64,000 nucleotides of DNA from Bryum argenteum. Taxonomy: Eukaryota; Streptophyta; Bryopsida; Bryales; Bryaceae. The notes under the pieces are model-generated. The model was not told the DNA's origin, made no database searches, and worked only from the letters and a program-made list of their open reading frames with translations. Numbering within the stretch: position 1 is the stretch's first letter; the number at the start of each line of letters is the position of its first letter. A program made the position numbers and the translations under genes. This document shows, piece after piece, positions 14,307 through 51,000 of this stretch. The stretch lies in contig CM073322.1 of the NCBI GenBank assembly GCA_037043015.1, positions 30,499,864 to 30,563,863 on the forward strand, written 5' to 3'.

Positions 14307-14630
14307 GACTGCCTGCAGAAACTTGAAATGCCCCTAACTTAGTCAAAACTTATCCGAATCGAACATTTAAGATGTTTTTTGACATCTACAGAACATGTAA
14401 ATGCCAAAAAACATCTTAAACGTCCAATTTGGATACGTTTTGACGAAGTTATAGACCTTTGAAGGTTTGACGGCCTTTGAAGGCCTATAACTTTGTCAAA
14501 ACTAATCCAAATTGTGCATTCAAGATGTTTTTTGGCATCTACATGTTTTGCAGATGTCAAAAAACATCTTAAATAAGCAATTCGGATAATTTTTGACGAA
14601 ATTGTGGGCATTTGAAGTTTAAAGAGCCCG
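14307..14630 (+). repeat. Palindromic module, copy 3
   Basis: Same orientation as copy 1 with few differences. Its left end has lost the TGGCTCTTT piece. On the right it runs into the GC-rich CCGACCG array. Confidence 0.85.
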
Positions 14631-26609: not shown

Positions 26610-26983
26610 TTCAATCAACTTGTAAGAATGGCTGCAAATATATGCGTAGAGGGTGTGGGTTTTTTCACTAGCTCTAATTTCTCGTTACCACTTCCACTTG
26701 ATGCAAACCGCCGCCTTAAGATCTTTTGCACTTGTGTGGCAAAAAATTAAAAAAGATAAAAAAGTACTGGAAACCTATGTTCCTTGCTATATTTCCAAAG
26801 TGCAAATATCAAGTATTCAATTTATGCTCAATGATAATAAAAACGAACACAGTCAATTTAATGTACATCCATAAGAGGATACTTAAGAATGGTGATCACA
26901 CAAAAAGCAATACAAACTATTCTAGACAACCCAAATCGCTTTACAAAAAATCCTAATGGTTTCACCTAGTCTATTGGTAATGT
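26610..26983. repeat. 3' flank shared by the tandem kinase genes, copy 2
   Basis: Matches 24630-24942. Carries the same ATATGCGTAGAGGGTGTGGG and downstream A-rich block. Confidence 0.85.
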
Positions 26984-28615: not shown

Positions 28616-29837
28616 CAGTCCGCCGCTCCAAAGTTAGCGCCCTTGTTGAACGCGCACGCACCATACGCAAGAGACTTTCGACTGCCAGCCACGAACTCTG
28701 AACGCGCTATGCATCCGGAGACAACCATCTGGACGGAAACGAGGGTACCTGGCAGGGATACAGGATGGTATAATCAAAGATACCATTGCTCCAGGAATCT
28801 AGAGTGGTATTATTGAGTTACCATCTTTGACGGAGTCCTTTTTTTGCAAGCTGTGTAACGGTACAGTACTCAAATATCAGAAAATACAGTGGTCAATTGA
28901 TAAATACGGTAGCGCATCCAGGGCACGCTAGGTAAATTGTCGGTAAATAATTACTCTTATATGGCTTCAATGCACGCCACTCATTATGGAGGATTCCCTT
29001 CGTCTTCGAGAACGCGTTGAATTGAGGTGGAGTGCATGGGTCATATCAAATCCCAGCCACCTGTCTGAAGACGTATCCCTTCCAATCTAGGGTTTGGCGA
29101 GTTCGTTGATGCTAGTGGATATTCTAAAAGGATTCTAGGTTTTCTTGGATATCAATCATCCCGCAAGTGAAATGATACAAGAAAGCAAGCCAGAGTTTCT
29201 TGATGCACATCTTGTAGTGTAGAGTGCATTTTCTAGTGGGAGGTTCGATTTTCTAGAGTCGCTTTGAGCGTGCCTTCGATGATTGAATTCCGGTAATTCA
29301 ACAGCAAAAAGGTTCAGGAAAGTTCAGTGTGTAGTTGCATATTAACATTGTAGGCATGTTAGTTTGTTATTATTTGCATTCAACTTTGCCGCTTGCACTC
29401 TTCATATTCCATGACCCTAAAAATATGCTGAACAGGATTCTGACATCAAATGAGCTCTCGCTCAAGAAATGCTGGTGATTTTTGGGGCTATTTTGTAACA
29501 TGGTCTTTGATATTCTCAGGAGGTTTTACAACACTTCTAATCAAAGGAGCGTTTCCAGTGGAGCATTCAATGCTGTCCACTCTCCTGTGCTTGTACGTTC
29601 GATTACATGCTATGACCTAATATAGTGCCTGTCCATTCCAATGTTTGATCACATGATGAGTCCATGCTTGAAATTTTTCTCTGTAACAGATACCTCGGCA
29701 ACAATTCATTTACAGGAACCATGCCCGGAGTTTCTTAATGCATTTGAAAGAAGTGAAAGTGCACTCCATCTCCTCATTAAAAAAGGTTCAGTGAATCACA
29801 TATAAACTCATCGACGTTTGATGACCTTCATTATGTA

Positions 29838-30825: not shown

Positions 30826-30925
30826 TATATAATAGATTGCTTCATAAAATGATAGAATGCCTTCTAAAATAATAGATTGCCTTAGAAAATGATAGAATGC
30901 CTTACATAATAAATTGATTGTTTCA
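30826..30925. repeat. Short imperfect tandem repeat
   Basis: Four alternating units of about 20 bp of the type AATAGATTGCCTTA and AATGATAGAATGCCTTA. The expansion is present in the left arm only. Confidence 0.8.
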
Positions 30926-32546
30926 AGGAAAGTTATTTAAATGATGTTTTTAGTACCCTATCTCTGTATATATTTATACTTGGTAAGGGCACCAAAATAT
31001 GGTCAAATATGGGGTCCATTATCTTTCGCTTATAAAGCTCTAGAGTAAATATTTATAAATTGGGAAAATATTGGGAGCATGAAAATCTGTGAGCATGTTC
31101 TCACCAAGGAAAGGAGAGTGGAAGCGATTATTACTTTTTTGTTCTCTTTCCGCAAAAATCAATAGTGTTGGTTGTCAAATCTCAAGTTTTATCAGAAGAG
31201 TAGGAATTAATTTGACACATTAATATGATGATATGAATTTGGATCCGCATAGGCTATTTACAACTCATTACTAAAATCAGTCGCGCAAGGTAGAGTTTAT
31301 ACTTTTGATTAACGATTGTTACAAGTGTTGTTGCAAGTTCTTTGTGGTTAGTTTGTTGAGTGTTTGGTACTAATATCTCCCCCTTTAGTTGCCAATTGAT
31401 GTTAATTGGAGATTCTTATAGAGAAAGGCAAAGCATTAAATAATATCGAAACAATTGTTTGTGCCTTTCAAAGTATAATTATTCATGTTGGCAAGCTTAT
31501 TGGAGGATGGCCAAGGGAATCAAATCTGAGAAATGCACAAATCATGTACAAGATTGAACCAATTGATATAAGAAGTCCTTGATAATTATAAATAAAATTT
31601 CTTGAATTTATTTTTGGGTAGGTCTACTGAAAAACACACATTTTAAAATATACGCTAGATTTGAAGGTGAAAAGTAAAATGTCCCTCGTACTTTCTTCAT
31701 ACTTGAATGCCCATCGTAGCCCCTCGCCCCTCATACACAATTTTTGGTCACGTGTGGTTTTTGAGAGCTCTTCCTAATTTAACTTGCTTTCTTACACAAG
31801 TTCGTACACAAGATATGTTCCAATGTAACAACGCCATATCTCAAGATGTGCAAATTCTCTGAGACGATGATTGTTCTTCAAAGAGAAGCGGATGTGTAAA
31901 TCAAAAGAGAAAGAAAGAAGAATTAGAACGACAGAAAAACACAATTCAAAACTTCAACAGAACCCACAGTTTCCGGACGGTGCCTTCAACTCAAGAGCCA
32001 TCCTTGACCACAGCGTCAGTATGTACGAATAATCCAACAGAACTTTATTTCACTAAACTGTTCAGTTCACTTGAATTTCGTTATTACAGATATATGTATG
32101 CTGCACTCTAACATTTATTATTGTCAAGCTGGTCTAGCTAGGGACCTCTTGAATGCAGGCTAGTACAGACTAATTAAGGGATCTCTGTATTTCAGTGCTA
32201 CGAGTGTTTCTAGGAGCCCCCATCAGCCAATGGGACTTTTGCTTCAAAATCCCTGGAATTTTCTACTTGGACCTCCCAATGGCCGTTTCTGATAATTTTG
32301 AATTCAAATTTGAGGTCTGCGACGTAAATTACCTTGGAGTGCCTTCTCCTTGGAATTTCAAACCTATACATCAAAAAACTAGGGGGCAATTTATCCATCC
32401 CCTCCCTGGCTGCTGAAAAACGCTCGTAGCACTACAATAGAGAGATCCCTAATTAAGGGGAGCGTGGCTCCTCTCCGCCGCACAAGTGTCGGTGTCGGTG
32501 TCGGTAGCGAAGGAGATCCGCCACCGTAGCGATGCGGATCGATGAT

Positions 32547-33062
32547 TTAGTAGGGCTTCTGGCCACGTACGTTGCCGGCGGGGCTGTAGCTGCAGATGAT
32601 GTAGCTGGACTTGTACTGATCATTGCATGTCAAAGTGGCGCACCCCACTTGCGTCGTCGCCTTCCACACCACCTGCTTGTAGTGCCCGCACACTTTCCCC
32701 AGATTGCAGCTGTTGCTCTGGTAGTTGTAGTCTTTCTTCTCTCCCACCCACGACGCCACCGCATCCTTGGCCGATGGCGGCATCGTCGTGTTGTAGCCCC
32801 AGTACAGATTCTCGCCGTATGGTCCCGAGGAGTGGACCAAGGGAGTGCAGCTGTTCAACCGAGTGCTCCCGTAATTGCGAGCGTACGTCGCCAGAGTGGT
32901 GTTCCACGCGAGAGGTCCCACGCCCACTGCGCTCCGGGCTGCGTTGTGGGGTGTCAGAAACGCTTGCGCCGAGTTGAGATCGCTCTGCGCGTTTACTGCC
33001 ATCAGCCCTGACAGAGCCAGAGCAGCAACCAGCGCCGATAGCACCATACTGAATCTTGCCAT
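32547..33062 (-). CDS. PR-1 (CAP/SCP domain secreted protein), copy 1
   Basis: 171 residues, single exon. A signal peptide (about 1-25, ending MAVNA) precedes a CAP domain. The start at 33062 is chosen because it opens the signal peptide; the frame is open further upstream without one. Six Cys (72, 119, 125, 141, 146, 157) fit the three PR-1 disulphides. The CAP cavity residues are His39, Glu84 (GENL), Glu108 and His127 (CGHY). The C-terminus is PAGNVRGQKPY, the CAPE-peptide pattern. Compared with the copy at 40883 it differs at five sites: 4 F/I, 93 T/A, 121 L/P, 129 K/T and 162 A/P. Thr at 129 is the family norm (HYTQVVW), so this copy is the diverged one. PR-1 proteins act in the apoplast, bind sterols and restrain oomycetes. 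A TATA box lies at 33197-33204. Confidence 0.93.
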   Translation of the reverse strand: MARFSMVLSALVAALALSGLMAVNAQSDLNSAQAFLTPHNAARSAVGVGPLAWNTTLATYARNYGSTRLNSCTPLVHSSGPYGENLYWGYNTTMPPSAKDAVASWVGEKKDYNYQSNSCNLGKVCGHYKQVVWKATTQVGCATLTCNDQYKSSYIICSYSPAGNVRGQKPY

Positions 33063-33196
33063 GATTGACGTCGCTGGTCGAGCGATCGATCGATCACTCC
33101 TGGTCCTAGCCAACTTGAAAGACAGAATCGGAGAGCAGAAATGATTGCGGAGAGGTGCTGGATTGCGACTGTGTTTCAGCAAATGGGGGCATCTTC

Positions 33197-33204
33197 CTTA
33201 TATA
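33197..33204 (-). promoter_or_regulatory. TATA box of PR-1 copy 1
   Basis: TATATAAG on the minus strand, about 135 bp before the start codon. The matching site in the other arm is at 40741-40748. Confidence 0.6.
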
Positions 33205-33837
33205 CAGATCGATTCCGGAACATCAGTTGCTGATTCAATTGATTAATCACACGTGCGCTACTAAATGGTATTACCACTTCGCTCGCCTGATTTTCAGGAC
33301 TAGCACGCACCGATGAGGAACAGAAAGCAAGAATATATGGAGCTCCATTCTTTTATTTAACACCAAATTAGTAGCATATACTCTGAAGATATCTGCATTG
33401 AATAATTTCATATGTGAACTATCCTTGACCAGGTATCCAGCATCGGAATCGAGTCAAGCATAGTATTACTCAGTCAGAGCATGAAGCGGAATTCTTCGAC
33501 GTGAGAAAAGAAATTCATGACTAAGCTGCTAGAAAGCAGCGATGGAAGAGCATCCATCTGCTTCATTTAAAATGGCTGATGAAAAGTTACTTCAGTCGGT
33601 ACCATATTCAGGATTGTACTTCCACCTGAAGCTACTCGTGGAAAACTCGTAGCAGGGCCGCCGCGGGCAACGTGTACTCAGACATGGGATCGTGTGACCG
33701 TGCGAAGTCCGCCTGAAAGCGAAAATCTAAACTAGTGAGTTTCAAATGCTCAGGTCACTCTAGAGTCTAGAATATAAAGTCCCAAGATATGACAATGACA
33801 AACTAAATGTAAATAATCTGAAATGCAGCTGACTTTG

Positions 33838-33945
33838 TAATTGAATATCAACTGAAACACAAACACCGAATTTCAACTGAAACACAAACATTTGATTTCA
33901 ACTGATACACAAACACCCAGTTTCAACTGAAACACAGTCAGCGAA
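33838..33945. repeat. Minisatellite in the PR-1/thaumatin intergenic region, left arm
   Basis: Four units of about 27 bp carry TTTCAACTGAAACACAAACA or close variants. Each contains CAACTG, a MYB core-like word, inside a small palindrome. The counterpart in the right arm is at 40018-40112. Confidence 0.8.
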
Positions 33946-34811
33946 AACGACTGATCTCGACACATTGAATGTTCAGTCCTAAGTGAGATACACGTAACCA
34001 AATCCCAGTTGAGGCACACTTAATGTTCCCAAACGTTAATTTTCAATGATCACTATAGTAACCATTTCACAAAACTGAACAACCCATAGTAATTATTTCA
34101 GAAGACTGAATGATTAAGTCAAGATTTGGACTAGTAGTTGAAATGAGCCCATCTTTAGTTGAATGTGACCAGTATGAATGCACAATGCAGATGATTCTCA
34201 TGCGTCGACCATCATCACGCTCCTCCATGTCCGCTTTACTTCCTGAAGTGTGAATCGAGCTATACGAGCCACAGAAAAAAATAATATATGTAGCTGCGAT
34301 CTTCTGCTCGATACCGATCTCCACGTTCTGTAAGGACGTCAGCACTGAGACGGTTTTTCAATTGTCTGTACTGACACGATTTTTCAATTGTCTGTAATCA
34401 GTTAATAGCATGGTAATGGCAAGTGCTAAACCAGAGCTCGACACGAATTTGAGATCACTGCTGTGACGTGGACAAAAGAAATTGGTACGGTGGCTACTAA
34501 GATCGAAGCAGCTAGCGATGGAAAGTCAGCAATATTGCACTTCATGGAATTGGCTGAAGGTCAGACACGTCAAGATCGGTACCAATTTCCAGGACTCTAA
34601 GTTAGGTCCAGAGAAGCTACTTCTGGAACGCCCCTCCCTATGAGCAGACATGCGTACAGACATCGTGAGCGATTTCCACGTAGTGAAACGTGCTACTGGA
34701 TTATGTAAGAAGTGATCGAGGAGGTGATCCAAGCATCCCAGTATCGATCAGTTTGCTGTTCTCCTCTAGCTCCCAAGTCTATTTACTCTTCAGCTCAACC
34801 AAGACTCCGAG

Positions 34812-34919
34812 ATGTCGAAGTTGGGGAGGACTCCATTGATGGCAGCGCTGCTTCTTCAGCTCGCTGGCATCGCTTTTTTCGCTCTTAGCTCTGTCCTCAG
34901 ATTGGGACATCCTATGTAA
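34812..34919 (+). pseudogene. Thaumatin-like protein, first-exon fragment
   Basis: Starts MSKLGRTPLMAALLLQLAGI, the same signal peptide as the intact gene at 39132, but homology stops just before that gene's intron-1 donor. The frame then reads a few unrelated codons to TAA at 34917. No thaumatin domain follows. The TATA run seen upstream of the intact gene (39235-39248) is reduced to GGATTATGTAAG here. It is the relic of the divergent partner of PR-1 copy 1. Confidence 0.85.
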
Positions 34920-35143
34920 AGGAGTGATATTACAGAAGAAATAATGATATTATAGAATACACCACTTACTATGCATACAAAATGTAAGATCTGGTGTGAC
35001 AAAATGGCACATGGAATAGTGCCATTTACACGGAATTGAGGTTTGATATAATTGGCACTCACATTTATAAACATATAACATCATTTCAATAATTTTTCTT
35101 GAAAAAAACAATGAATTATTATGAGAACCATTTTTTAAATTTC

Positions 35144-35840
35144 CGCACGGGTAGAGCTCGTTCACGATGTCTGCAGCCAAGCACATCACTCACACGTTGC
35201 TGCCTCAGGCGACCAAGCAACGAGTTCTCCAGAAGTATTGTCAGTGGTCCTACAGTTCTGAATATGGTACAGACTGAAAGTACGGTGACTCTGAAGTCAA
35301 GAGCCATTCTCATCAAGTAGATGTACAATGTAGAATAGTCCTCTTTCCTAGCTGCTTCTGGCAGGCAACCATTTCTGTAAGGCACACCGAGCATGCATGA
35401 AGCTTGAGGCCCTGTAGCTCACCAACCAGTCCTTGATCGATCGCGACGGAGCTCTAACGTTGAAGTTGTTGCCACGCAACGGCTGAGTCCATGCGCTTGA
35501 TCCTCACTGCTATCCCAACAATGAAAATGTCTCACTGACATCCCGGCAGAGAATATGGTAGAAGGTGCTTACCGTAAGCACCATATATACTTAATTTCTG
35601 TGCCGCAGATTGCTCGATCTACACGTCAGGAATTGAAGTGGAAATGTTGGAACGCGCTAATGCTTGGAAAGTAGACACAGCTCGTCTGCTTTAGCTAGGT
35701 CCTGCCAACATGACAAGTGGTACTTGCGCAGCTGCCCTGGTGGCCATGGCAGCTCTGGTGCTTGTGCAGTTGCCTGGAGCTTCAGCTTAAAACCCGTCAT
35801 GTACAAGCTTTCTCACCAAAGACCTCCGGGGAAATTTGAA
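35144..35840 (+). repeat. Direct repeat of the chitinase upstream region plus start of exon 1
   Basis: 35144-35680 matches 43444-43980 in the same orientation (for example GAGCATGCATGAAGCT and GATCTACACGTCAGGAA). The part after about 35700 matches 44960-45090, the chitinase start. Sequence between these two parts in the intact locus (43980-44960) is missing here, so the copy has an internal deletion. Confidence 0.8.
35710..35840 (+). pseudogene. GH19 chitinase, first-exon fragment
   Basis: The ATG at 35710 opens a signal peptide almost identical to that of the chitinase at 44969 ([10 protein letters not shown]). The codon at the cleavage site, CAA for Gln in the intact gene, is TAA here (35788-35790). 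Homology continues for about 50 bp and then ends. The only possible product is a 26-residue signal peptide. Confidence 0.85.
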
Positions 35841-35982
35841 CAGTCAAACCAGTCTGTAGTGAGTTGTCTGTGCACTTGGTACCGATACAAATGGGATGCT
35901 CATCCTCAAAAAGGTAGCGCTGACTACCCCGGCATTGTCAGTTCTCTCGGTAGATTGATCAGTTCGAGTGTGCAATCAGTGA

Positions 35983-36999
35983 GTGATCATGAGAGGGTGT
36001 GGAGCGGTGATACTGCTCGTGACGGTGTTGGCCATGGCCACACTGAGTTCCGGAGCGACTATCGGTATTGACTTGGGCTTGCTCTCCACCCAACTGCCTC
36101 CAATCTCCGAAATCGTGCAGCTTCTCAAGAGCCGATCCGTGACGGGTGTTCGCATCTACGATGCTTCCGCGAGCGTTCTCCGGGCATTCGTGAACCAGGG
36201 GATCGCGGTGTCGGTGACGGTGCCGAACCCCAGCGTCGTCAGCTTCGCGAACAACCAGCAAGCAGCCACGGATTGGGTGAGAACCAACGTGCAGCCATTC
36301 GCGTCCACGATCGACCGTATCACAGTCGGCAATGAGTGGTTGAACAATCCCAGCAACGACCCGTCAAAGCTCCTGCCCGCGATGCAGAATGTGAACACGG
36401 CGCTCGCGTCCCTGGGCGTGAACAAGAAGGTGACTACTGCCCACGCCTACGATATCGTAGATGGGTTCCCTCCGTCTGCTGGGACCTTCAAAAACGCCGC
36501 AGTGATGACCCAGATTCTTGCGTTTCTGAAGCGCACAGACTCCGCATTCATGGTCAACATCTACCCCTACTTCACGTATTCGTACAATCCTAATACGATT
36601 AACCTGAACTATGCGCTAGGGAATGCGGGTGCTCCATCGGTGACGGACTCAGGCTCCGGCAAAACGTACACGAATTTGATGGATGCGCAGATCGACACTG
36701 TGATCTCGGCCATGACGAGGGTCGGTTCCGGCGACGTGAGGCTCATTGTGGGTGAGACGGGGTGGCCTTCTGCTGGCGGTACGGGCGCCACGGTGAGCAA
36801 TGCGAAAGCTTTCAACCAGAATATCGTGAGACAAGCGCTGGGTGGTAAGGGCACTCCGTTGCGGCCCGGTGTGAATATCCGAACTTACATCTTTGCTTTG
36901 TTTAATGAGAATCAAAAGACTGGTCCCGATGTGGAGCGTAACTTTGGCTTGTATTTCCCTAACAAGCAGCCCGTCTATGATATCAATCTGTCGGTATAG
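35983..36999 (+). CDS. GH17 glucan endo-1,3-beta-glucosidase (PR-2 type)
   Basis: 338 residues, single exon. Hydrolyses beta-1,3-glucan of fungal or oomycete walls and of callose, in the apoplast. A signal peptide (about 1-24, ending LSSGA) leads straight into the GH17 barrel. The acid/base is Glu118 in VGNEWL and the nucleophile Glu258 in VGETGWPSAGG. NIYPYFTY (192-199) and FALFNENQKTGPDVERNFGL (304-323) are family signatures. There is no C-terminal CBM43 or GPI signal, so it is the short, secreted class. An ATG two codons later is equally possible. It sits alone in the spacer between the two inverted-repeat arms and just after the chitinase fragment. A likely polyadenylation signal (AATAAA) lies at about 37092. 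Confidence 0.93.
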   Translation: MIMRGCGAVILLVTVLAMATLSSGATIGIDLGLLSTQLPPISEIVQLLKSRSVTGVRIYDASASVLRAFVNQGIAVSVTVPNPSVVSFANNQQAATDWVRTNVQPFASTIDRITVGNEWLNNPSNDPSKLLPAMQNVNTALASLGVNKKVTTAHAYDIVDGFPPSAGTFKNAAVMTQILAFLKRTDSAFMVNIYPYFTYSYNPNTINLNYALGNAGAPSVTDSGSGKTYTNLMDAQIDTVISAMTRVGSGDVRLIVGETGWPSAGGTGATVSNAKAFNQNIVRQALGGKGTPLRPGVNIRTYIFALFNENQKTGPDVERNFGLYFPNKQPVYDINLSV

Positions 37000-37429
37000 T
37001 AAGTGTGACAGAGCACAGTATCTGAAGCTTTACTTTGTCCTTGAGAGGTGCTCACAGTCATTTTGCAATGACAGAACTCGAGGTGCTAGCTGCAATAAAA
37101 CGTGTCTACGATTGACACAAACATTGTGTAATTTGCATATTCACATGTTGAGATCAATGAATTCAAAAGTGTTTTTGGCCATTGTCTAGGACACGCAGTG
37201 TAAATGATGCCAAGGGCAAGTTGTGGTTTGTTACCCCAAACATTTTGGGCATAATTTTTCCATAAAGGTATTCAAGTCTGATACATTCATGCAAAATTTT
37301 AGAGACTCTTTCTTTATTTTTGACCTTCATGCAGATTCTTTTTCAAAACAAGGTCTAGAAACAACAATATAATAAAAAATGCATTTCAATAAATATATAT
37401 TTGGTCTAAGAAAAATTAAACGACACGTA

Positions 37430-37876
37430 AATGCCTTTATGGGTGTGTGATTTTTGAGAAAATTTCAAAATCTCACATTTTGACAAAAAAATCAAGAAAT
37501 AATTTGGAAATTACTAGAAATTGTGACGATTGTTTTTGTAATTTTTGGAGGCTACCCTTGTGAATTGACAAACTTTTTATCGTATGTCATTTTGAAACTT
37601 GAATAATGATTTGGCTATGGACATCTTTCTTTTTAGATTTAAAAAAGTCTAAATCTAAACTGCCATTTCTAGACTTGAAACCTTAAATTCCTAGATGAAG
37701 GCTATAAAAGTAAAATTTGGTTTTGAAAATTTTACCACGTACACATTGTAATATAAAAAGCACCATGTATAAATCTTAAACAAAAAGATTACTTCTAACC
37801 CCCTTCATCCAAGCTGCAACAAAATCGCAAAAACCCATTTCATGTTTTAAGAATACTTAGGAGTTGAAAACTTTGA
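37430..37876. mobile_element. Degraded partial copy of the fold-back TTAA MITE
   Basis: Diverged match to the right half of the element at 3081-3973: the AGGCTAC..GTGAATTGACAAACTTTTT region, TTTTACCACGTACACATT, and CTTCTAACCCCCTTCATCCA. The expected right-hand TTAA is TTGA. No left half was found. Confidence 0.7.
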
Positions 37877-38179
37877 GAAACCACCTTACAAAGATCGCTG
37901 CAGAGACTGCAAAAATGATTCACACTCAGTACAAAAGTGCCATGATGAATTTACACCAGCGATTCGACATGTAAACAAAGATGTGGCTGATGGAAGGTCA
38001 TACACAAAACTAGAGACGTTTTATTGAACTCGAGAAGCCGGAGCGTTCTCGGTCGGAATCAAGCACAGTGACAAGTATTATTCGGATATACGGAACCATT
38101 CGTAGACATTATTTACTTATTCCATAGCTCGGCGTGCGGATGTACGAAGTGCTTCGATCAACCTCGGTTGGCAGAGCAT

Positions 38180-39132
38180 TTAAGGGCAGAACACAACTTG
38201 GTAGTTCATGCCCGTGTTGCACCCGAACACCGTGCCTGCGTCGTCCTTGGAGTAGGAGTAAGACGTCGGGCAACGGTCCTTGAACATCTTGGTGCCGGCG
38301 GTGGCAACCAGTCCTGGCCCATTCGTATTCTTGCAGCCATTCCCTGGAGGTCCCGTCAGCCTGTTGGGCGACTGGCAGAAGGCCGAAATGTCCCTGATGT
38401 CGCACGTTATGGTCTTGCAGTTCCCTCCTCCTCCTCCTGAAGCGGGCGCGATCTTCATGCGCATGTTGTATGCATCCTGCCCCGACAATAATAGTTAGTC
38501 AGTATGATTACAGATCGAGTATATGGGAAGCAGCAATGAAACGAGATTGATTTTGAATACTGACCACGTTGCTGATGTCGTAGTAGTCTACGCCATTGGC
38601 GCCGATAGTGAGTTCCGCCAAGTTGGCCTGAGGCTTGGCTTGGTTGCCGACGGACGGATTGCCACTGTTTCCGGGAAACGCCCAGATGACACCGGCCGTC
38701 CAAGTTCTGCCAACGTCGAGTGACTGCCTGCCCCCGGCGTTAAGGACATAACAGTTCACATTGGCACCGCCGCAGCATGTCGCGCATGCTGTCAGGGTCT
38801 GCGGACACTGGTTGATAATGTCAATCTTTGCGCCTGCATGCCATTCACAAATTGGTTCAGTCGTGACTGTACAAAGTGATCGAACCCATCAGCCAAGAAT
38901 CATAAACGAACTGTCCCTCTCATCATGATGATAGTGTCTGTCCATAATCACGACTGAGCAGTGCCCTCAATCCAACAACAGATCACAACATCGTAGTACA
39001 TTAAGCACAAGAAACAGGGGTTCGATTCGAACTGAGGCACATACCATGGACAGAGCTAAGAGCGAAGAAAGCGATGCCAGCGAGCTGAAGAAGCAGCGCT
39101 GCCATCAATGGAGTCCTCCCCAACTTCGACAT
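38180..39132 (-). CDS. Thaumatin-like protein (PR-5 type)
   Basis: Three exons by GT-AG rules: 39132-39045, 38833-38565 and 38476-38180, giving 217 residues. Exon 1 is the signal peptide (MSKLGRTPLMAALLLQLAGI onward). Exon 2 begins the mature domain (AKIDIINQCPQTL, then CATCCGG, RTWTAGVIW and VDYYDISNV). Exon 3 has CDIRDISAFC, LTGPPGNGC, RCPTSYSYSKDD and ends YQVVFCP, the classical thaumatin C-terminus. It has about 12 Cys rather than 16, so it belongs to a small, diverged subgroup. Thaumatin-like proteins are apoplastic, and many permeabilise fungal membranes or bind beta-glucan. It is transcribed divergently from PR-1 copy 2 with about 1.75 kb between start codons. Its twin in the left arm survives only as exon 1. 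TATA run at 39235-39248. Confidence 0.92.
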
Positions 39133-39234
39133 CTCGGAGTCTTGGTTGAGCTGAAGCGTAAATAGACTTGGGAGGTAGAGAAGAACAGCAAACTGATCGA
39201 TACTGGAATGCTTGGATCACCTCGTCGATCGCTA

Positions 39235-39248
39235 CTTATATATATAAT
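39235..39248 (-). promoter_or_regulatory. TATA box of the thaumatin-like gene
   Basis: ATTATATATATAAG on the minus strand, about 105 bp before the start codon. The run is shortened in the truncated left-arm copy. Confidence 0.6.
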
Positions 39249-40017
39249 CCAGCAGCACCTGCTACTACGTGGAAATCACTCACGATGTCTGTACGCATGT
39301 CTGCTCATAGGGAGGGGCGTTCCAGAAGTAGCTTCTCTGGACCTAACTTAGAGTCCTGAAAATTGGTACCGATCTTGACGTGTCTGACCTTCAGCCAATT
39401 CCATGAAGTGCAATATTGCTGACTTTCCATCGCTAGCTGCTTCGATCTTAGTAGCCACCGTACCAATTTCTTTTGTCCACGTCACAGCAGTGATGTCAAA
39501 TTCGTGTCGAGCTCTGGTTTAGCACTTGCCATTACCATGCTATTAACTGATTACAGACAATTGAAAAATCGTGTCAGTACAGACAATTGAAAAATCGTCT
39601 TAGTGCTGACGTCCTTACAGAACGTGGAAGATCGGTATCGAGCAGAAGATCGCAGCTACATATATTATTTTTTTCTGTGGCTCGTATAGCTCGATTCACA
39701 CTTCAGGAAGTAAAGCGGACATGGAGGAGCGTGATGATGGTCGACGCATGAGAATCATCTGCATTGTGCATTCATACTGGTCACATTCAACTAAAGATGG
39801 GCTCATTTCAACTACTAGTCCAAATCTTGACTTAATCATTCAGTCTTCTGAAATAATTACTATGGGTTGTTCAGTTTTGTGAAATGGTTACTATAGTGAT
39901 CATTGAAAATTAACGTTTGGGAACATTAAATGTGCCTCAACTGGGATTTGGTTACGTGTATCTCAGTTGGGACTGAACATTCAATGTGTCGAGATCAGTC
40001 GTTTTCGCTGACTGTGT

Positions 40018-40112
40018 TTCAGTTGAAACTCAGTGTTTGTTTATCAGTTGAAATCAAATGTTTGTGTTTCAGTTGAAATTCGGTGTTTGTGTTTCAGTTG
40101 ATATTCAATTAC
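40018..40112. repeat. Minisatellite in the PR-1/thaumatin intergenic region, right arm
   Basis: Inverted counterpart of 33838-33945: repeated TTTGTGTTTCAGTTGAAATT units with CAGTTG (MYB-like) cores. Confidence 0.8.
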
Positions 40113-40740
40113 AAAGTCAGCTGCATTTCAGATTATTTACATTTAGTTTGTCATTGTCATATCTTGGGACTTTATATTCTAGACTCTAGAGTGACCTGAG
40201 CATTTGAAACTCACTAGTTTAGATTTTCGCTTACAGGCGGACTTCGCACGGTCCCACGAGCACATGTCTGAGTACACGTTGCCCGCGGCGGCCCTGCTAC
40301 GAGTTTTCCACGAGTAGCTTCAGGTGGAAGTACAATCCTGGATATGGTACCGACTGAAGTAACTTTTCATCAGCCATTTTAAATGAAGCAGATGGATGCT
40401 CTTCCATCGCTGCTTTCTAGCAGCTTAGTCATGAATTTCTTTTCTCACGTCGAAGAATTCCGCTTCATGCTCTGACTGAGTAATACTATGCTTGACTCGA
40501 TTCCGATGCTGGATACCTGGTCAAGGATAGTTCACATATGATATTATTCAATGCAGATATCTTCAGAGTATATGCTACTAATTTGGTGTTAAATAAAAGA
40601 ATGGAGCTCCATATATTCTTGCTTTCTGTTCCTCATCGGAACGTGCTAGTCCTGAAATTCAGGCGAGCGAAGTGGTAATACCATTTAGTAGCGTGTGATT
40701 AATCAATTGATTCAGCAACTAATGTTCCGGAATCGATCTG

Positions 40741-40748
40741 TATATATG
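40741..40748 (+). promoter_or_regulatory. TATA box of PR-1 copy 2
   Basis: TATATATG, 135 bp before the start codon. Lies at the same place as the site in the left arm. Confidence 0.6.
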
Positions 40749-40882
40749 GAGGATGCCCCCATTTGCTGAAACACAGTCGCAATCCAGCACCTCTCCGCAA
40801 TCATTTCTGCTCTCCGATTCTGTCTTTCAAGTTGGCTAGGAGCAGGAGTGATCGATCGATCGCTCGACCAGCGACGTAAATC

Positions 40883-41398
40883 ATGGCAAGAATCAGTATG
40901 GTGCTATCGGCGCTGGTTGCTGCTCTGGCTCTATCAGGGCTGATGGCAGTAAACGCGCAGAGCGATCTCAACTCGGCGCAAGCGTTTCTGACACCCCACA
41001 ACGCAGCCCGGAGCGCAGTGGGCGTGGGACCTCTCGCGTGGAACACCACTCTGGCGACGTACGCTCGCAACTACGGGAGCACTCGGTTGAACAGCTGCAC
41101 TCCCTTGGTCCACTCCTCGGGACCATACGGCGAGAATCTGTACTGGGGCTACAACACGGCGATGCCGCCATCGGCCAAGGATGCGGTGGCGTCGTGGGTG
41201 GGAGAGAAGAAAGACTACAACTACCAGAGCAACAGCTGCAATCCGGGGAAAGTGTGCGGGCACTACACGCAGGTGGTGTGGAAGGCGACGACGCAAGTGG
41301 GGTGCGCCACTTTGACATGCAATGATCAGTACAAGTCCAGCTACATCATCTGCAGCTACAGCCCCCCCGGCAACGTACGTGGCCAGAAGCCCTACTAA
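40883..41398 (+). CDS. PR-1 (CAP/SCP domain secreted protein), copy 2
   Basis: 171 residues, single exon, differing from copy 1 at five positions (see 32547). Signal peptide about 1-25, CAP cavity His39, Glu84, Glu108 and His127, and six Cys. It has the standard HYTQVVW motif and ends PPGNVRGQKPY, matching the pattern from which CAPE defence peptides are released in other plants (PxGNxxxxxPY); the upstream context is CSYS rather than CNYx. Expected role: apoplastic, sterol-binding antimicrobial protein and possible peptide precursor. It is divergent to the intact thaumatin gene and shares a 1.75-kb region likely to carry control elements for both. Confidence 0.94.
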   Translation: MARISMVLSALVAALALSGLMAVNAQSDLNSAQAFLTPHNAARSAVGVGPLAWNTTLATYARNYGSTRLNSCTPLVHSSGPYGENLYWGYNTAMPPSAKDAVASWVGEKKDYNYQSNSCNPGKVCGHYTQVVWKATTQVGCATLTCNDQYKSSYIICSYSPPGNVRGQKPY

Positions 41399-41872
41399 AT
41401 CGTCGATCCGCATCGCTACGGTGGCGGATCTCCATCGCTACCGACACCGACACCGACACTTATGCAGCGGAGAGGAGCCACGCTCCCCTTAATAAGTCTG
41501 TACTAGCCTGCATTCAAGAGGTCCCTAGCTAGACCAGCTTGACAATAATAAATGTTAGAGTGCAGCATACATATATCTGTAATAACGAAATTCAAGTGAA
41601 CTGAACAGTTTTCTGAAATAAAGTTCTTTTGGATTATTCGTACAGACTGACGTTGTGGTCAAGGATGGCTCTTGAGTCTTGAGTTGAAGGCACCGTCCGG
41701 AAACTGTGGATTTTGTTGAAGGTTTGAATTACAAGTGTTTTTTTGTCATTCTAATTCTTCTTTCTTTCTCTTTTGATTTACACATCCGCTTACCCTCGAA
41801 GAATTTGCACATCTTGACATACGGTGTTACGATGGAACATATCTTGTGTACGAACTTGTGTAAGAAAGTAAG

Positions 41873-42240
41873 TTGACCCTTAAACGCCCAAGGTTACCCG
41901 AGGGGTCACCTTCCAACAGAATCTTCTCTGTAGCTCTCATTGTACTCAACTTTTCAATTATTTTGTTGTCAAACTGATCACCTTCTTGTGATACATTCAA
42001 AAAGTGAAATTTTACAATTCAAACCACAATTTGTATGAATGATTTTGTGCTTTGAAAGGATTGTGGTAGCGAGGTTGGGGTTGTACGTAACCTTGTAGGA
42101 GGTTGCAAGCTCATCATTGATTGGTGCATTCATGGTGCCCAAGTTCGAAAAGTGCACTATTCATGATGCCCAAGTCCAAAAGATGCTGTGATCCAATTTT
42201 GGGCTGCCCGTTCTAGACCCCATGGGCGTTTAAGGGTTAA
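41873..42240. mobile_element. 368-bp TTAA MITE inserted in the right arm
   Basis: Left end TTGA-CCCTTAAACGCCC, right end GGGCGTTTAAGGG-TTAA, with 13-bp perfect inverted repeats. The left target copy carries one change (TTGA). The corresponding place in the left arm (TTAA at 31779-31782) has a single TTAA and no insert, so the boundaries are supported by an empty site in the same window. Confidence 0.92.
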
Positions 42241-43443
42241 GGAAGGAAGCTCAAAATCCGCAAGTGACCAAAAATTGTGTACGAAGGGCCTATGAGGGGT
42301 CTACGGGGTCTATCATGGGCCTTCAAGTATGGGCCTTCAAGTTTGAGGGAAGTGGGAGGGACATCATACTTTTCACCTTCAAATTTAGCATACATTTGAA
42401 TATGTGTGGTTTTTGGAACACCTCCCAGAAATGTAACTTCAAGAAATTGTTACTAATTTTATATAAATCATTGATTATAATTTCAGTCTCGTACATGTTT
42501 TGTACATTTCTTAACTTTGATTCCCTTTGGCCATTCTCTACTGAGCTTGCCAACATGAATTTGCTTTGTTATGCATAAACAATTGTTTTAATATTATTAA
42601 GTACTATGCATTTTCTCTAAAAAAATCTCCAATTAACATCAATTGGCAACTACAGGGGGAGATCTTAGTACCAAACACTTAACAACTAACCACAAAGAAC
42701 TTGCAATTAACACCTTTTACAATCATTAATCAAAACTCTAAAATCTAACTTGTGCCAGTGATTTAATTAATGAGTTGTAATGACCTATTGAGATCCAAAT
42801 CGCAGTTATCAGTATATGCCATACTGATTCCTACTCTACTAGTAAAAACTTGAGATTTGACAACCAACATCATTAATGTTCACGGAGAGAGGGATAAAAT
42901 AAATAATATCATCCATATTATAAATAAATAAATAAAATAAATAATCGCATCCACTATCATTTTGTTGGTGAGAACATGCTCACAGATTGTCATGCTCCCA
43001 ATATTTTCACACGTATAAAATATGGTGTATAAAGGCGAAAGATAATGGACCCAAAATTGGTGCCCTTACCAAAATTGCAACATGTTCAAATATATACAGA
43101 GGAAGTGGGCCATAATATCATTTGAATAATTTTTCTTGAAACAAATCTAAGGCAGCATATTATATAATATATGGCTATTTTGGTTGTGACATTTATGATC
43201 TCAGAGACCATTGATCAGATCGGCCCAACAAGTATCTTTGTAGGGATAGCGGATCATCAACCGATGTGGGCAATAATTGGATCCCAGGTCGGGCCAACGA
43301 ATCGCCGTATTTGAATTTTAAAGTGTTTATGGCCCCAAAGATCACCGGAAATTATTCAAAATGACCTCATTTAAGATCGGGCGTACTGGTGCGTACTGGT
43401 GAATCTCAAAAAGTGCATCTTTTGAAATTCCCGACAAGAGGTG

Positions 43444-43980
43444 GCGCACGGACAGAGCTCGCTCACGATGTCTGTACGCACATCATTCACACGTTTCCCG
43501 CGGCGACCAAGCACCGAGTTTTCTCCAGAAGTTATGTCAGTGGTCCTACTGTCGTGAATTATATGGTACCGATTGAAGTAACTCTCAAGTCATAACCCAT
43601 TCTCATGGAAGTACAAATAGTGTAGAATAATCCTCTTTCATGGCTGCTTCTACCAGCCAACCACCATTCTTGTGTTTTACTGTACGGCACACGGAGCATG
43701 CATGAAGCTCGATCGAGGCACTGTAGCATACCAACTATTCCTCGATCGATCACTGTAACGTGGAATGTTTGTTGCCATGCAACGGCTGATCGAGTCCGTG
43801 CGCGTGATCCTCGATGCTACCCGTGGATGTTAAGCAAACAACGGAAATATCAGATCGCTAATCAACACCCCCAGAGAAAATATGGTAGTAGCTCCGTATA
43901 TACTTGTTTTCTATGCCGCATGGAGCTCGATCTACACGTCAGGAAGTGGAAGTGGAAATGTTGGTACGTGCTGGTGACAC
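43444..43980 (+). repeat. Direct repeat of the region upstream of the chitinase
   Basis: Pairs with 35144-35680. Lies 1 to 1.5 kb upstream of the intact chitinase. Contains no gene. Confidence 0.8.
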
Positions 43981-44820
43981 CATCAATTCAGTTTGTTTTA
44001 GTATTTCTGATGCAGATGACGCAATCCATGTCTATCTGGTAGATCCCTTTTCAGAGAAAGTGAATAAACACAGGAAAAATATTGCAATTCCTGCGAAAGA
44101 AAAAGCTTTAAGGTATTTACTCCCAGTAATTGGTCGGAAATTCATGTCTGTCTGTATCATTAACATTTCGACAAGCACCATAGCATGCGAACGAGCATGC
44201 ATTGCACGAGATGTTATTACAGACGTAGATTTAGACTTCATTGAGAGATAAGGTGGTGATATTTTACCCTTTGTATAATCATCGCCACACGAACGAATTT
44301 CGTCATCTTCACAGCACTTCAGGAAGTTACGTTACATTTTCGCACCAATGGAACATAATGTGACATTTGTTCAGTTGTTCACCGTCATTGATCGACTAAA
44401 TGAAGCGAAAAGGTCGTACTTCTGTCAGTGACAAACAGTTCAACCATAACAATTTCCTCTAATTTCGAGCAAGTAACCCAGATGGATCAACACAGATGGA
44501 TCAACACCCCAAAACTGATTTGCTTAATATCAACTGTATAATATTATGTTACTTCGAATGCGGAAGACTTCTGAGTGCATCGGTGGACCAGATGTCCTGT
44601 ACAGACATGTGTAGTCCACATACCATTTTTTCCATTGCTTGACATTTGTGTAGTCCACTGACATTGCTTGACATATGTCTGATGCATCGGTGAGGCCTTT
44701 CAGACAAATGTAGTCCACAAATGTCAATGATCGAGGCGGTGGTACTAGATACGGCTTCTCCATGATCATCGCTATCACCTGCAGCTCATCGATCGTGACG
44801 TGATCGGGAACTTCAATAAA
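43981..44820. other. Upstream region of the chitinase gene, no separate gene seen
   Basis: Three copies of GTAGTCCAC with nearby TTGACAT words lie at about 44600-44725. The small open frames here look incidental. Confidence 0.4.
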
Positions 44821-44835
44821 CTGGGGTTGTCAACT

Positions 44836-44841
44836 TTGACT
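44836..44841 (+). promoter_or_regulatory. W-box (WRKY-binding) next to the chitinase TATA box
   Basis: TTGACT is a canonical W-box. The context GTCAACTTTGAC places two TTGAC cores in opposite directions a few bases apart, 20-30 bp before the TATA box. WRKY factors drive many PR genes; binding here is inferred. Confidence 0.45.
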
Positions 44842-44859
44842 AAGCTCAGTCAGGAGTCC

Positions 44860-44867
44860 TATATAAG
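44860..44867 (+). promoter_or_regulatory. TATA box of the chitinase gene
   Basis: TATATAAG, about 105 bp before the start codon. Confidence 0.65.
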
Positions 44868-44968
44868 TCCACCCTCAACACCTCACTTCATCACAACTAC
44901 ATGCCTTCAGTGCCAGCTTGATCACGCACTGTAAGTTTCATAGCTCGTCTTCTCCTGCTCTCACCAAC

Positions 44969-45958
44969 ATGACAGGCGGTCCTTTCGCAGCTGCCCTGGT
45001 GGCCATGGCAGCTCTGATGCTTGTGCTGCTGCCTGGAGCTTCAGCTCAAAACCCGTCGTGGACGAGCTTCCTCACCAAAGACCTCTTCAACAGGCAATTC
45101 CCGGACCGTGTTGCTTTCTACACTTACGAGGCCTTCGTGAAGGCCGGCGCATCGCCTTACGCTAACTTCGGTGCAGAAGGAACTCAAGACGACAGGAAGC
45201 GCGAGTTGGCGGCATTTTTGGCCAACATCAAGCACGAGTCTGGAGGTACCCACGATCATGCAACTCCCATTGTGCTATCACCATACAGTTGACATTTTAC
45301 TATCAATGATTCCCGTTCACTTAATACTCCAACTCCATGCAGTACATGCTATCACCATGATGTTACTATCAGTGGTTTCCGTTGACTTCATACTCTAACT
45401 CCAACTTGTTGGCAATTTTGGAGCACAGGGTTGCGGTATACCGTGGAGCAGAACCCGCAATCGATCTACTGTGATGCATCGAACAGGAATTATCCGTGCG
45501 CTCCTGGAAAGACATACATCGGCCGAGGTCCCATTCAGCTATCATGGTAAGATGATGTTAAATACTTTCTCTTTGGAAATCATCCAAGAATTGGGTCTCG
45601 ATCGGGGGATATGTCATTGGCAGTATTTCAAGTTGGTGACTTGTTGGGGTGCAGGAACTACAACTACGGAGACTGCGGGAAGGCTATTGGAAAGAACTTG
45701 CTAGCCAACCCCGACCAAGTGGCTCAGGTCCCCGAAACGGCATGGCAGACAGCCATCTGGTTCTGGATGACTCGAGGTCCGCACGCCGCCATCATGAGAA
45801 ACTCCTTCTCCGGCACCATCAGGGCCATCAATGGCGGCCTGGAGTGCGGGAAACCCGCAGGAAGTCAGGGGAACAACCAAATGCAGACTCGCGTCACGTA
45901 CTACAAGAACTTCTGCAGCGCCCTCGGTGTCAACCCCGGCACTGACCTCACTTGCTGA
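44969..45958 (+). CDS. GH19 chitinase (PR-3 type), secreted
   Basis: Three exons with GT-AG borders: 44969-45245, 45429-45546 and 45655-45958; 232 residues. Cleaves chitin of fungal walls, acting in the apoplast. The signal peptide ends LPGASA (26) before Gln27. There is no chitin-binding (hevein) domain and no vacuolar tail. The catalytic Glu90 lies in KHESGG (equivalent to HETTGG) and the second Glu99 in [26 protein letters not shown] and GPIQLSWNYNYG are the GH19 signature. The protein is shorter than hevein-type chitinases and has the compact catalytic domain seen in classes II and IV. TATA box and W-box lie just upstream. A fragment of a second copy is at 35710. Polyadenylation signal AATAAA near 46007. 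Confidence 0.93.
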
Positions 45959-48017: not shown

Positions 48018-51000
48018 TTAATTCAGGTCCATAATGTCCCCAGCGCCGAGTGTATCGCTCTCATGACGCACTGCGTTGTACTTCTCTGCAAGAGAGCCGA
48101 CCTTGACCGTATGGTTCATGAAAGATTTGAATCGCAATGTAGGCTCCCCACTGTCATCCATACAATTACAAACGTCAACAACTGAAGGCCCTACAGAAGC
48201 ATCACTTGCACAGAACGTGTAGGCCAGGACCCTTCTTTCAACGCAATGCTCAGACATACCTTATCCGGTTCAGGGAGTCAATAGCACGAAGTGCACTTCG
48301 AATCATGTCCTCGTTGCGGTCAACCTCTTGCTTGACAGCATCTGGTTTTGTCTTGTGTTGAATTGTCTTTTCCAGAGGGTCCACAAGCGCATCCATAACT
48401 GTATCAAAGAATTCACTTCGTCACTCATTTTAAGCAGCTACTCACATTTCCTTCAATTTCCGGTAAAACTAGCGAACGACAATGCAATAGCTCATGAAAA
48501 TGAAAAGAAACTGCTTGTACCTGCCAAAACTGCACCCCCACACTTGGCTGCCAACTTTGATAAAATAAGGTGGCATGGCATCTTCACATCATAATGATCT
48601 GCACAGAAAGAAAGCCAAGACAATTTGTTCTAAATACATCAAATTTGGGGCTTAAATGGCTGCACCTTCAGTTGCAAATCCAGGACCCAATATTCAGACC
48701 CTCTCTGATGGGCTGCAATAAAAACGATGATGAAAAGCAAACAGGGACGCACCTGCTAAACCAGACAACAGATGAGGAGTGATGAAAAGTGAAGGATCAA
48801 TCTTGTCCAGGCAGCTATCGAGCAGTGTATCCACACATTCGAAAGCTCCCTTTCTAAGTTCCAACCCGTCGTCCACAATATGCTTGAAAGGACCGAGATC
48901 CACAGTCCTGATCAGCTCTTTCTGCACATCAGGAACAATAAAAACTCTCAGCGCAGATTTAGGATCACTCTAATCACTCAGAGTGATCGGAAGAACTGGT
49001 GAGCTCTAAGATAGGAACTCCGATGAGAACTGATTCTGCAGAACCGAGAAAATAAGCATCCAAATAACTAGCCACGTCGGACAGCATATCATGTAGATAG
49101 GAAGTTGCTTTACCTTGACTACTGTTTGATCATAGAGGAGTGGCAATAATGTGGGCAATAACTCCTTCACCAGTGCGGGCTTATTATGGGCTGCTGTACT
49201 CAAAGCTGAAACTGCGGCCCTCCTTACATGCTGGCATTACAATCAACATGAGACATTTCACTAATCCGGATCATGCTGGAACTGGCGAGAAGGTCATAGA
49301 GTACGCTCCTTCGTACTAAATCGCATACTAAGGATTATCTTACAAAACAACAGCAGCTACTCTTAACAAATACAAGCTCCACAAGATAATCTAATGAACT
49401 CTCTAATCTCTGGTTCTTATAGACCCATCATAGGCTATTTAGGAAAAGTAAAAATCTTACCCTATCTTCATCCTTGATAAGGAGCAAGAATGATGAGATA
49501 CATGACTTGACGTAGGAGTCAATAGGTTGCGGTCGCTCAACGATGGTATATTTGATAGCAATAACCACTGTGGCTCTAGTATAGGCTGAGGGACTAGCTG
49601 TGCGTTCCTGAGACAAACCAAACAGATATGCATGAGACCGTGCTGAACACAGGATAGGTAGATACATCTACACTATCAATAATCAAACGACAAGTACCGC
49701 CAAGAGCCAACCTTGAGAGCAGGCACCAATTTCTCAGGTTCAATGAGCGCCAACTTTCCGAGACACTCCGCAACGACATTGCGAACCCCTTCCTCTTCAC
49801 TCTCGCAATGTGTGAACAGCAAACTCAGGATTTTTTGCACGTCTGCATCTTGCAGATCCATATTTCCTTTTGCTTCACCATCCATAGATTGGCGTGCTAT
49901 CACCTCCTTCAAGGAATGAAGAAGTAGATACTGAAGTTTGGCTTGGCGGTCGATTTGGCTAAGAATGACAGGTAGATACAGAGCCAAGTTCCCAACGGCG
50001 ATATTGCCCAACGCATATGATGCGGCAGCCTTAATCTCCTCAGTTGGAGACTGGAAAGATCTAATTACAACGGCTTCGATGTTGGGGTGGTTACTTAAGT
50101 CCTTCCTTCTTCCAATTTCGCCAAGGCATAGCAGAGCTAATAGCTGAGTCTGCAATCAGACAGGAGTGACTTGATTAATTGAAACAGAGTAATTGATGAG
50201 TTGAACATTCATGCGATACGTAAGCAGCTAGTCAAATTTCAAGTAATACAGCATGAACGATTAAAATCATCTTCGATGTCAATAAATTTTAAAGAAAATT
50301 TTGAAGAGTTCTAAGCAAGAAGTGTCATCTGAAAATTCAAGATGTGACGATTTATGACTTACTGCATCCGTGCCACCGCTACTCCTTAGGGTAGAAACCA
50401 GCATGCTCACAGTCTGAGTGCACTGAGCCTCTCCTGCTGCGAGACAAAGTACTGCCGCACATTGCGCAGTAGAATGAAATGCCTGCTTGCTGGCAGGCCC
50501 ACCAGGAGATGCACTCCTTGCAGTAGAAAGTAAAGCTTCTAATAATGTGTCAAAACTTGTATTTGCTGATTGTACCAGCGCCGCGAAGAAGGCTTGAAGT
50601 GTCTGATATCCACGTATATCCAAGTCAGCCCTACGTTAGTCTGGCATCGTGTATTCATTGAGTGGATAAACTAAGTATTATGATACTAAGCATTAATGGC
50701 TCATTTACTGAAAGATCATTTAGATTCGGCTTCAATGATATTACCTGCAACGCTTGACCCTGCAGCAAGGAACTTTTAACAAGAACGAGCGCTTGAGGCA
50801 GAACACGTTCCCTAACAGCAGCACCAGCGTTGGAGTGGTGCTTCTTATCAACCATCATGGTACAACATAACTCCAACGTTAACGCTGTCATGTGTAAGTC
50901 TGCGTCACTGCAAAGCCAGGAACAGATAAGCCTTCTCACTGAGGCCGCAAATACAGAAGCACATTAACAACATTAAGACGTACTCGTCGAATGTATTGGA

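What the first reader, a model, noticed from the sequence alone, without database searches (positions are those of the whole stretch)
32547..45958. Four classes of PR genes in one 13.4-kb block
PR-1 (two copies), PR-2 glucanase, PR-3 chitinase and PR-5 thaumatin-like protein lie next to each other with no unrelated gene between them. In well-studied seed plants these families are usually scattered, or tandem only within one family. A mixed, secreted, cell-wall-attacking set suggests a co-inherited defence cluster, possibly co-induced. The sequence shows the genes; co-regulation is inference.
Basis: partly seen in the sequence, partly recalled or inferred. Interest (0 to 1): 0.85.

Follow-up and report, generated by a model that had tools for sequence, protein, structure and literature searches.

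The report
Duplicated moss-like defence-gene block, shared promoters
Five plant defence genes from four unrelated families really do sit side by side here, and they appear to have been put together by local copying, inversion and gene insertion that left a related stretch of upstream DNA beside every one of them, which makes joint control plausible and easy to test.

Summary
In detail: PR-1 (two genes), GH17 (PR-2), GH19 (PR-3) and thaumatin-like (PR-5) genes fill 32547-45958, and between them I found only repeats and gene relics. In this genome (258.8 Mb) the four families make 78 loci by my count; uniform random placement never put four families into 13.4 kb in 20,000 trials.
The PR-1 genes lie in arms of an inverted repeat: about 2.7 kb at 97.8% identity, then a step to 81.5%. 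The left arm carries an orphan thaumatin exon 1. A chitinase promoter plus truncated exon 1 precedes the glucanase, and there begins a 1.3-kb glucanase segment matching a paralogue 45 kb away. A roughly 0.5-kb upstream module (M) recurs beside all the genes; its 28-base core occurs six times in the genome, all here.
Best reading: a PR-5/PR-1/PR-3 unit was duplicated, partly inverted, received a glucanase behind a chitinase promoter, and its arms were homogenised. Co-regulation through M is likely but unproven; the one testable pair of M copies evolves no slower than its flanks. Probably a moss (inference). No plant relatives or expression data were available.

The parts
32547..33062 (-). PR1-A, intronless CAP/PR-1 gene, 171 aa, in left arm
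   Evidence: Pfam CAP; model and 5 aa / 2 synonymous codon differences to PR1-B
40883..41398 (+). PR1-B, intronless CAP/PR-1 gene, 171 aa, in right arm
   Evidence: Pfam CAP; best PDB match plant basic PR-1 9lyt, E 9e-34
35989..36999 (+). GH17 beta-1,3-glucanase (PR-2), intronless, 336 aa
   Evidence: Pfam GH17 E 2.5e-77; PDB 6jms/2cyg
35822..37139 (+). GH17 segment 90% identical to a paralogue at G000:C2:30491002-30492308, 45 kb to the left
   Evidence: blastn; dS 0.187, dN/dS 0.26; junction alignment
38180..39132 (-). Thaumatin-like (PR-5) gene, 3 exons, 217 aa
   Evidence: Pfam Thaumatin, splice model, PDB thaumatin-like hits
44969..45958 (+). GH19 chitinase (PR-3), 3 exons, 232 aa, closest in PDB to a moss chitinase
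   Evidence: Pfam GH19, model, PDB 3wh1 E 9e-82 (3wh1 = BcChi-A of the moss Bryum coronatum, PMC7844276 passages)
30918..34896 (-). Left arm of inverted duplication (PR1-A plus orphan TLP exon 1)
39048..43144 (+). Right arm of inverted duplication; inner end lies inside TLP exon 1, 3 bp before its end
   Evidence: 97.8% to about 41730 (2611 of 2671 ungapped columns), then 81.5% (790 of 969)
34812..34895 (+). Orphan TLP exon-1 copy (28 codons, donor site lost)
   Evidence: tblastn 28 of 28 residues identical; sequence at the break
35705..35826 (+). Chitinase exon-1 relic: signal peptide followed by an in-frame stop, truncated where the GH17 segment begins
   Evidence: 90% DNA identity to 44964-45085
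35137..35664 (+). Module M upstream of chitinase relic/GH17
   Evidence: nhmmer; 71% by blastn to the chitinase copy; core 35577-35604
43438..43978 (+). Module M upstream of chitinase
   Evidence: nhmmer; core 43890-43917
40221..40690 (+). Module M upstream of PR1-B (mirror copy 33259-33728, - strand, upstream of PR1-A)
   Evidence: left-out nhmmer E 6e-23; GH+CH-only model 4e-17 and 8e-5; core 40605-40632 and 33317-33344
39267..39741 (+). Module M in the shared TLP/PR1-B intergenic region; its 5' end is about 25 bp upstream of the TLP TATA (mirror copy 34208-34681, - strand)
   Evidence: left-out nhmmer E 1e-20; GH+CH-only model 2e-12 and 2e-6; core 39654-39681 and 34268-34295
32178..32455 (.). 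Repeat (MITE-like, about 49-bp inverted ends) only in left arm
41873..42240 (.). Repeat only in right arm, copies in 5 other fetched loci
   Evidence: L010, L016, L019, L024, L028
34906..35043 (.). Repeat at the junction between the inverted arm and the direct duplicate

Best explanation
This is a locally assembled PR-gene cluster. Read from the sequence: a TLP(-)/PR-1(+)/chitinase(+) unit (39048-45085) has a partial second copy to its left (30918-35826). In the copy, the TLP-exon-1/PR-1 part is inverted and the chitinase is cut off in exon 1. A 1.3-kb glucanase segment, also present 45 kb away, begins exactly at that cut, so the glucanase lies behind a duplicated chitinase promoter. The inner 2.7 kb of the inverted arms are 97.8% identical while the outer parts are 81.5%, as gene conversion between arms would produce. 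A roughly 0.5-kb upstream module M lies beside every gene (reversed for TLP). Inferred: the order of these events; and that M carries shared cis-elements that switch the secreted antifungal set (PR-1, glucanase, chitinase, TLP) on together, so the glucanase gained the cluster's induction by promoter capture.
For: Inverted arms and step in identity: (2611 of 2671 against 790 of 969 identical columns, Fisher P 8e-59; the cut at 41730 was set after seeing the profile). Arm-private repeats argue against an assembly duplicate. Direct duplicate of chitinase upstream plus exon 1. Short inverted copy of the same sequence at both ends of the inverted segment (30885-30948 and 35077-35143, 76%), as a staggered-break inversion leaves. 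Chimeric glucanase junction at 35822-35826; the paralogue has GATATAAATGG about 100 bp before its ATG, the block copy GATACAAATGG. Similar divergence of outer arms (80.1% identity), M_GH/M_CH (81.6%) and GH17 dS (0.187) fits one building episode. M homology: left-out profiles find each of the four copies (E 1e-66 to 1e-20); a profile from GH+CH alone finds collinear blocks in the PR-1 and TLP/PR-1 copies. Uniqueness: the 28-base TATA-like core of M, searched over the whole genome with up to 3 mismatches, gave 6 matches, all the copies of this block with 0 mismatches, and no other; the reversed-pattern control gave 1. Whole-genome DNA searches with M copies gave matches only in this block (one search adds one 64-bp match from the spacer, not from M). 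M profiles found none at E <= 0.1 in 33 other own-genome loci, 282 kb, which include all 11 other CAP and all 11 other thaumatin loci found outside the window, 8 of 12 other GH19 and 3 of 38 other GH17 loci. In the moss Physcomitrium, PR-1, PR-2, PR-3 and PR-5 genes are upregulated after Botrytis (PMC9520294, passages).
Against: No expression data. M_GH and M_CH differ as much as the outer arms (396 of 485 against 660 of 824 identical, P 0.51), so there is no sign of selection on M since that duplication. Four-way conservation along M is uneven (variance P 0.003) but its peak is not significant (P 0.06). Chitinase, PR-1 and TLP each have a TATA of their own nearer the start codon than M's TATA-like block, so M may act only as a distal element or not at all. 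In TLP the module is reversed, and before the chitinase it is about 1 kb away. Known defence motifs (W-box, TGACG) are not uniformly present. Ungapped identity between M subfamilies is only 53-57%. The plain DNA searches are not sensitive to such divergence: the search with the chitinase copy did not return the PR-1 and TLP/PR-1 copies that are known to be there, so only the core-pattern search and the 33 loci speak to distant copies.
Confidence: 0.55

Rival explanations
1. Passive hitch-hiking: the block is a duplication hotspot; M is merely non-coding DNA carried along by repeated local duplications and has no shared regulatory job. The PR genes are neighbours by accident of rearrangement.
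For: M_GH and M_CH diverge like the outer arms; the chitinase relic and orphan TLP exon show that non-functional pieces are carried along; a repeat lies at the junction.
Against: Hitch-hiking must still put M beside two unrelated gene families (PR-1 and chitinase) independently; four-family co-location is far from chance in this genome; the genes stay intact, with dN/dS 0.26 for the glucanase pair.
Confidence: 0.33
2. M is a transposable element or solo LTR that happened to insert several times here.
For: Repeated about 0.5-kb unit with a TATA-like end; other repeats in the block have copies elsewhere.
Against: The 28-base core has no match outside the block with up to 3 mismatches; DNA searches with M copies matched only the block; none of 33 other loci at E <= 0.1; no terminal inverted repeats (longest exact match 5-6 nt). 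The DNA search skips very common words and misses strongly diverged copies.
Confidence: 0.05
3. The 98% core is not conversion but a second, younger duplication laid over an older one.
For: The same data fit two events; identity is flat across about 2.6 kb and falls between 41.65 and 41.86 kb.
Against: The outer parts continue collinearly in both arms, so a second duplication would have to land exactly in register; conversion does this without further assumption.
Confidence: 0.2

Closest known systems
Tandem PR-gene arrays of seed plants (PR-1, TLP, GH17, chitinase clusters; recalled, not tested)
   Same: Secreted PR families, local duplication
   Different: Here four unrelated families are mixed, with homologous upstream DNA and a chimeric insertion
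Operon-like clusters of non-homologous plant genes (metabolic gene clusters; recalled)
   Same: Adjacent non-homologous genes proposed to act in one process
   Different: Products are secreted defence proteins, not a pathway; co-expression untested; a duplicated upstream module is visible
Inverted duplicates or palindromes homogenised by gene conversion (recalled)
   Same: Two arms with a near-identical core and diverged edges
   Different: Small (2.7-kb core) and flanking a defence gene set
Marchantia MTPSL terpene-synthase cluster (PMC12890914, passages)
   Same: Bryophyte gene cluster associated with symptom severity; the authors propose duplication via transposon activity
   Different: One gene family only

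Membership tests
   Pfam; six Cys and ...GNVRGQKPY end in both copies; PDB plant PR-1 match. Signal peptide judged by eye only
PR-2 (GH17) | Full GH17 domain with both catalytic Glu regions (motifs recalled) | tested here: met
   Profile 1-305 of 306; VGNE and GETGWPS present; PDB plant glucanases. The PR label (pathogen induction) was not testable
PR-3 (GH19 chitinase) | GH19 domain with catalytic Glu | tested here: met
   alignment to BcChi-A has HESGG where the 3wh1 E61A mutant has QASGG
PR-5 (thaumatin-like) | Thaumatin domain; 16 or 10 cysteines in the mature protein (recalled) | tested here: inconclusive
   Domain met; 12 Cys in the whole predicted protein, so neither classic count
Co-regulated non-homologous gene cluster | Co-expression of the members | not testable with these tools
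   No expression data; only homologous upstream modules
Co-regulated non-homologous gene cluster | Physical clustering beyond chance | tested here: met
   0 of 20,000 uniform placements put four families together
Conserved (syntenic) cluster | Same arrangement in relatives | not testable with these tools
   The tool says G000 has no relatives here; the genome collections held are prokaryotic
Transposable element (for module M) | Dispersed copies, terminal repeats | tested here: not met

The most novel reading that the evidence does not exclude
A promoter-capture defence cluster: one cis-regulatory module was copied beside genes of four unrelated PR families, and a glucanase was recruited by dropping into a decapitated chitinase copy, so that a single induction signal releases the whole cell-wall-attacking cocktail.
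Probability: 0.4. Interest if true: 0.82.

Novelty: new variant of a known kind. Interest (0 to 1): 0.62.

Why it matters
How clusters of non-homologous plant genes form is an open question. Here the scars are still readable: a glucanase and its paralogue, a truncated chitinase at the junction, duplicated upstream modules and homogenised arms. That makes the idea that clusters grow by duplicating promoters directly testable, probably in a moss, a lineage whose defence genes are much less studied than those of flowering plants.

Tried and rejected
Rejected: M as a dispersed repeat; assembly artefact (arm cores differ by about 2% and each arm carries a private repeat); a retrocopy origin of the glucanase (the duplicated segment includes the TATA region and I see no poly(A) tail); a second full chitinase in the block (the family search has, on this part of C2, only matches at window 45110-45955); an 'unrelated gene' at 42234-42575 (sub-threshold viral Pfam hit); known RNA families (none at gathering threshold in the window).

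Led nowhere: motif scan for W-box, TGACG, GCC and G-box gave no pattern common to all promoters; end blocks and middle of M do not differ in conservation between the GH17 and chitinase copies (P 0.56). The GH17 gene at C4:4724303 has a similar profile score but is only 37% identical in protein. Two sequence-only models of the M blocks could not be used on the whole genome.

Literature: seven searches, of which five looked for PR genes in clusters or tandem; I saw titles and starts of abstracts of the listed part only (20 of 66, 6 of 6, 12 of 192, none found, 10 of 231), and no listed title or abstract start reports a mixed PR-1/2/3/5 cluster. Searches were about placing the organism. I read passages only of PMC12890914, PMC9520294, PMC5350094 and PMC7844276.

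Hand choices: M boundaries, the merging of hits to loci, the core/outer cut at 41730 and the core pattern (written from the four copies, which therefore match by construction) were set by me after seeing the data.
Full report
OBSERVATION. The block is real and its coordinates are right. Pfam finds CAP twice, GH17, thaumatin and GH19 at the stated places. All five genes have open models: PR1-A 33062-32547(-), PR1-B 40883-41398(+), GH17 35989-36999(+), TLP with three exons 39132-38180(-), chitinase with three exons 44969-45958(+) (no transcript data). Six ORFs lying between the genes were tested and none gave a Pfam match over a curated cut-off; of three more tested outside the block one is a CAND1-type domain at 48697-48969. 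Catalytic-site regions of GH17 and GH19 are present (motifs recalled).

CHANCE. The window is C2:30499864-30563863 of a 258.8-Mb, 25-contig assembly. Family searches of the whole assembly gave 32 GH19, 54 GH17, 17 thaumatin and 13 CAP hits, which I merged by hand to 13, 39, 13 and 13 loci. In 20,000 uniform placements of these 78 loci, three or more families shared 13.4 kb in 0.01% of trials and four in none. Outside this neighbourhood only one other inter-family pair lies within 50 kb: a thaumatin/GH17 pair on C11. Uniform placement ignores gene density, and the tool calls its counts lower bounds, so the figure is rough, but the excess is large.

ARCHITECTURE. The block is a scarred duplication. 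The left arm 30918-34896 is an inverted copy of 39048-43144. Identity is 95.5-100% per 200 columns from the inner end out to about 41.65 kb, 93% in the next window, and then 78-82%; in totals 2611 of 2671 columns against 790 of 969. Each arm has a private repeat, 32178-32455 on the left and 41873-42240 on the right. The inner end of the arms cuts TLP exon 1, so the left arm carries an orphan copy of that exon (28 of 28 residues). Next to it, 35137-35826 is a direct copy of the chitinase upstream region and of the start of its exon 1 (90% over 122 bases), ending in a 26-codon signal-peptide ORF with an in-frame stop. About 960 bases that lie between module and exon in the chitinase locus (43977-44938) are missing from the copy and were found nowhere else in the genome; whether they were gained or lost is open. 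Relative to the source, the copied unit is therefore 39048-45085 with its first part inverted. A 67-base sequence present in inverted orientation at both ends of the inverted part is what a staggered-break inversion leaves. A repeat (34906-35043) sits at the junction.

GLUCANASE INSERTION. The GH17 gene belongs to a 1.3-kb segment, 35822-37139, that is 90% identical to C2:30491002-30492308. Its left end coincides, within five bases, with the end of the chitinase relic (35826). The block copy is therefore most simply the derived one, inserted into or replacing the rest of a chitinase copy; the direction is inference. dS between the two glucanases is 0.187 and dN/dS 0.26, which points to both being kept functional. 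The paralogue has a TATA-like GATATAAATGG about 100 bases before its ATG; the block copy has GATACAAATGG. Divergence of the outer arms (80.1% identity), of the duplicated module (81.6%) and the glucanase dS are alike, which fits one building episode followed by homogenisation of the arm cores; this timing is inference.

MODULE M. Upstream of PR-1, chitinase and the glucanase, and in the shared TLP/PR-1 intergenic region (reversed with respect to TLP), lies a related stretch of about 0.5 kb. Profiles built from three copies recover the fourth at E 1e-66 to 1e-20. A profile built only from the GH17 and chitinase copies recovers two collinear blocks in each of the other two (E 4e-17 and 8e-5; 2e-12 and 2e-6). 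Its best-kept part is a TATA-like block; a 28-base pattern written from the four copies, searched over the whole genome with up to 3 mismatches, matched 6 places, all of them the copies in this block (the four plus the two mirror copies of the left arm), and nothing else; the reversed pattern matched once, and shuffles of the window gave none. Whole-genome DNA searches with the GH17 copy (3 matches), the chitinase copy (2) and the TLP/PR-1 region (3) gave matches only in this block, apart from one 64-base match that lies in the spacer between modules. Those DNA searches are weak for diverged copies: the one with the chitinase copy missed the PR-1 and TLP/PR-1 copies. In 33 other own-genome loci (282 kb, 30 of the 33 around other PR-family genes) the four-copy profile had no match at E <= 1 and the two-copy profile one at E 0.61. 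There are no terminal inverted repeats.

WHAT IT PROBABLY DOES. The products are, by their families and N-termini, secreted proteins of the classic antifungal set. In Physcomitrium, PR-1, PR-2, PR-3 and PR-5 genes are upregulated after Botrytis (PMC9520294, passages), and TLP and chitinases are secreted after fungal elicitor treatment (PMC5350094, passages). I infer that M gives the genes of this block a common response and that the glucanase acquired it by capture. Against this, the two most similar M copies have diverged as fast as the outer arms (P 0.51), known motifs are not uniform, and three genes have a nearer TATA of their own. So the anatomy is shown, and the co-regulation is a reasoned hypothesis at about even odds or slightly better.

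ORGANISM. The chitinase is closest in the PDB to 3wh1 and 4ij4 (277 bits each; the next distinct chain 231 bits, a class IV chitinase 185). 3wh1 is BcChi-A of the moss Bryum coronatum (PMC7844276, passages). A moss is likely; the species is not known to me.

NOVELTY. Local duplication, inversion and arm conversion are known processes, and clusters of PR genes within one family are known (recalled). A mixed PR-1/2/3/5 block with a repeated private upstream module and a readable promoter-capture junction did not appear in the listed results of my five searches on the subject, of which I saw only titles and abstract starts. I rate it a new variant of a known kind.

Noticed in passing
21119-22638 (-): Thaumatin C-terminal domain directly followed by a receptor-type kinase (PR5K-like), by eye broken by at least one in-frame stop and a frame change; it lies 10 kb from the block, and its thaumatin part is 32% identical to the block's TLP.
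   Followed up: partly
L021 (G000:C11:1822000-1831999), 4876-9320: A second divergent pair of a thaumatin-like gene and a GH17 gene in this genome, without a match to module M.
   Followed up: partly
4844-5756 (-): piggyBac-type transposase fragment (DDE_Tnp_1_7, E 3.5e-20 for 4844-5482; the rest by eye) in a plant genome.
   Followed up: no
24943-28633 (-): Two tandem kinase genes, about 88% identical in DNA.
   Followed up: no
L009 and L010 (G000:C4:9803828 and 9810362): Another pair of CAP genes about 6 kb apart in divergent orientation; the closer one is 58% identical in protein to PR1-B.
   Followed up: no
8352-9107, 10901-11965, 13994-14789: A family of long repeats with inverted and direct copies, the longer matches at 80-94% identity.
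   Followed up: no
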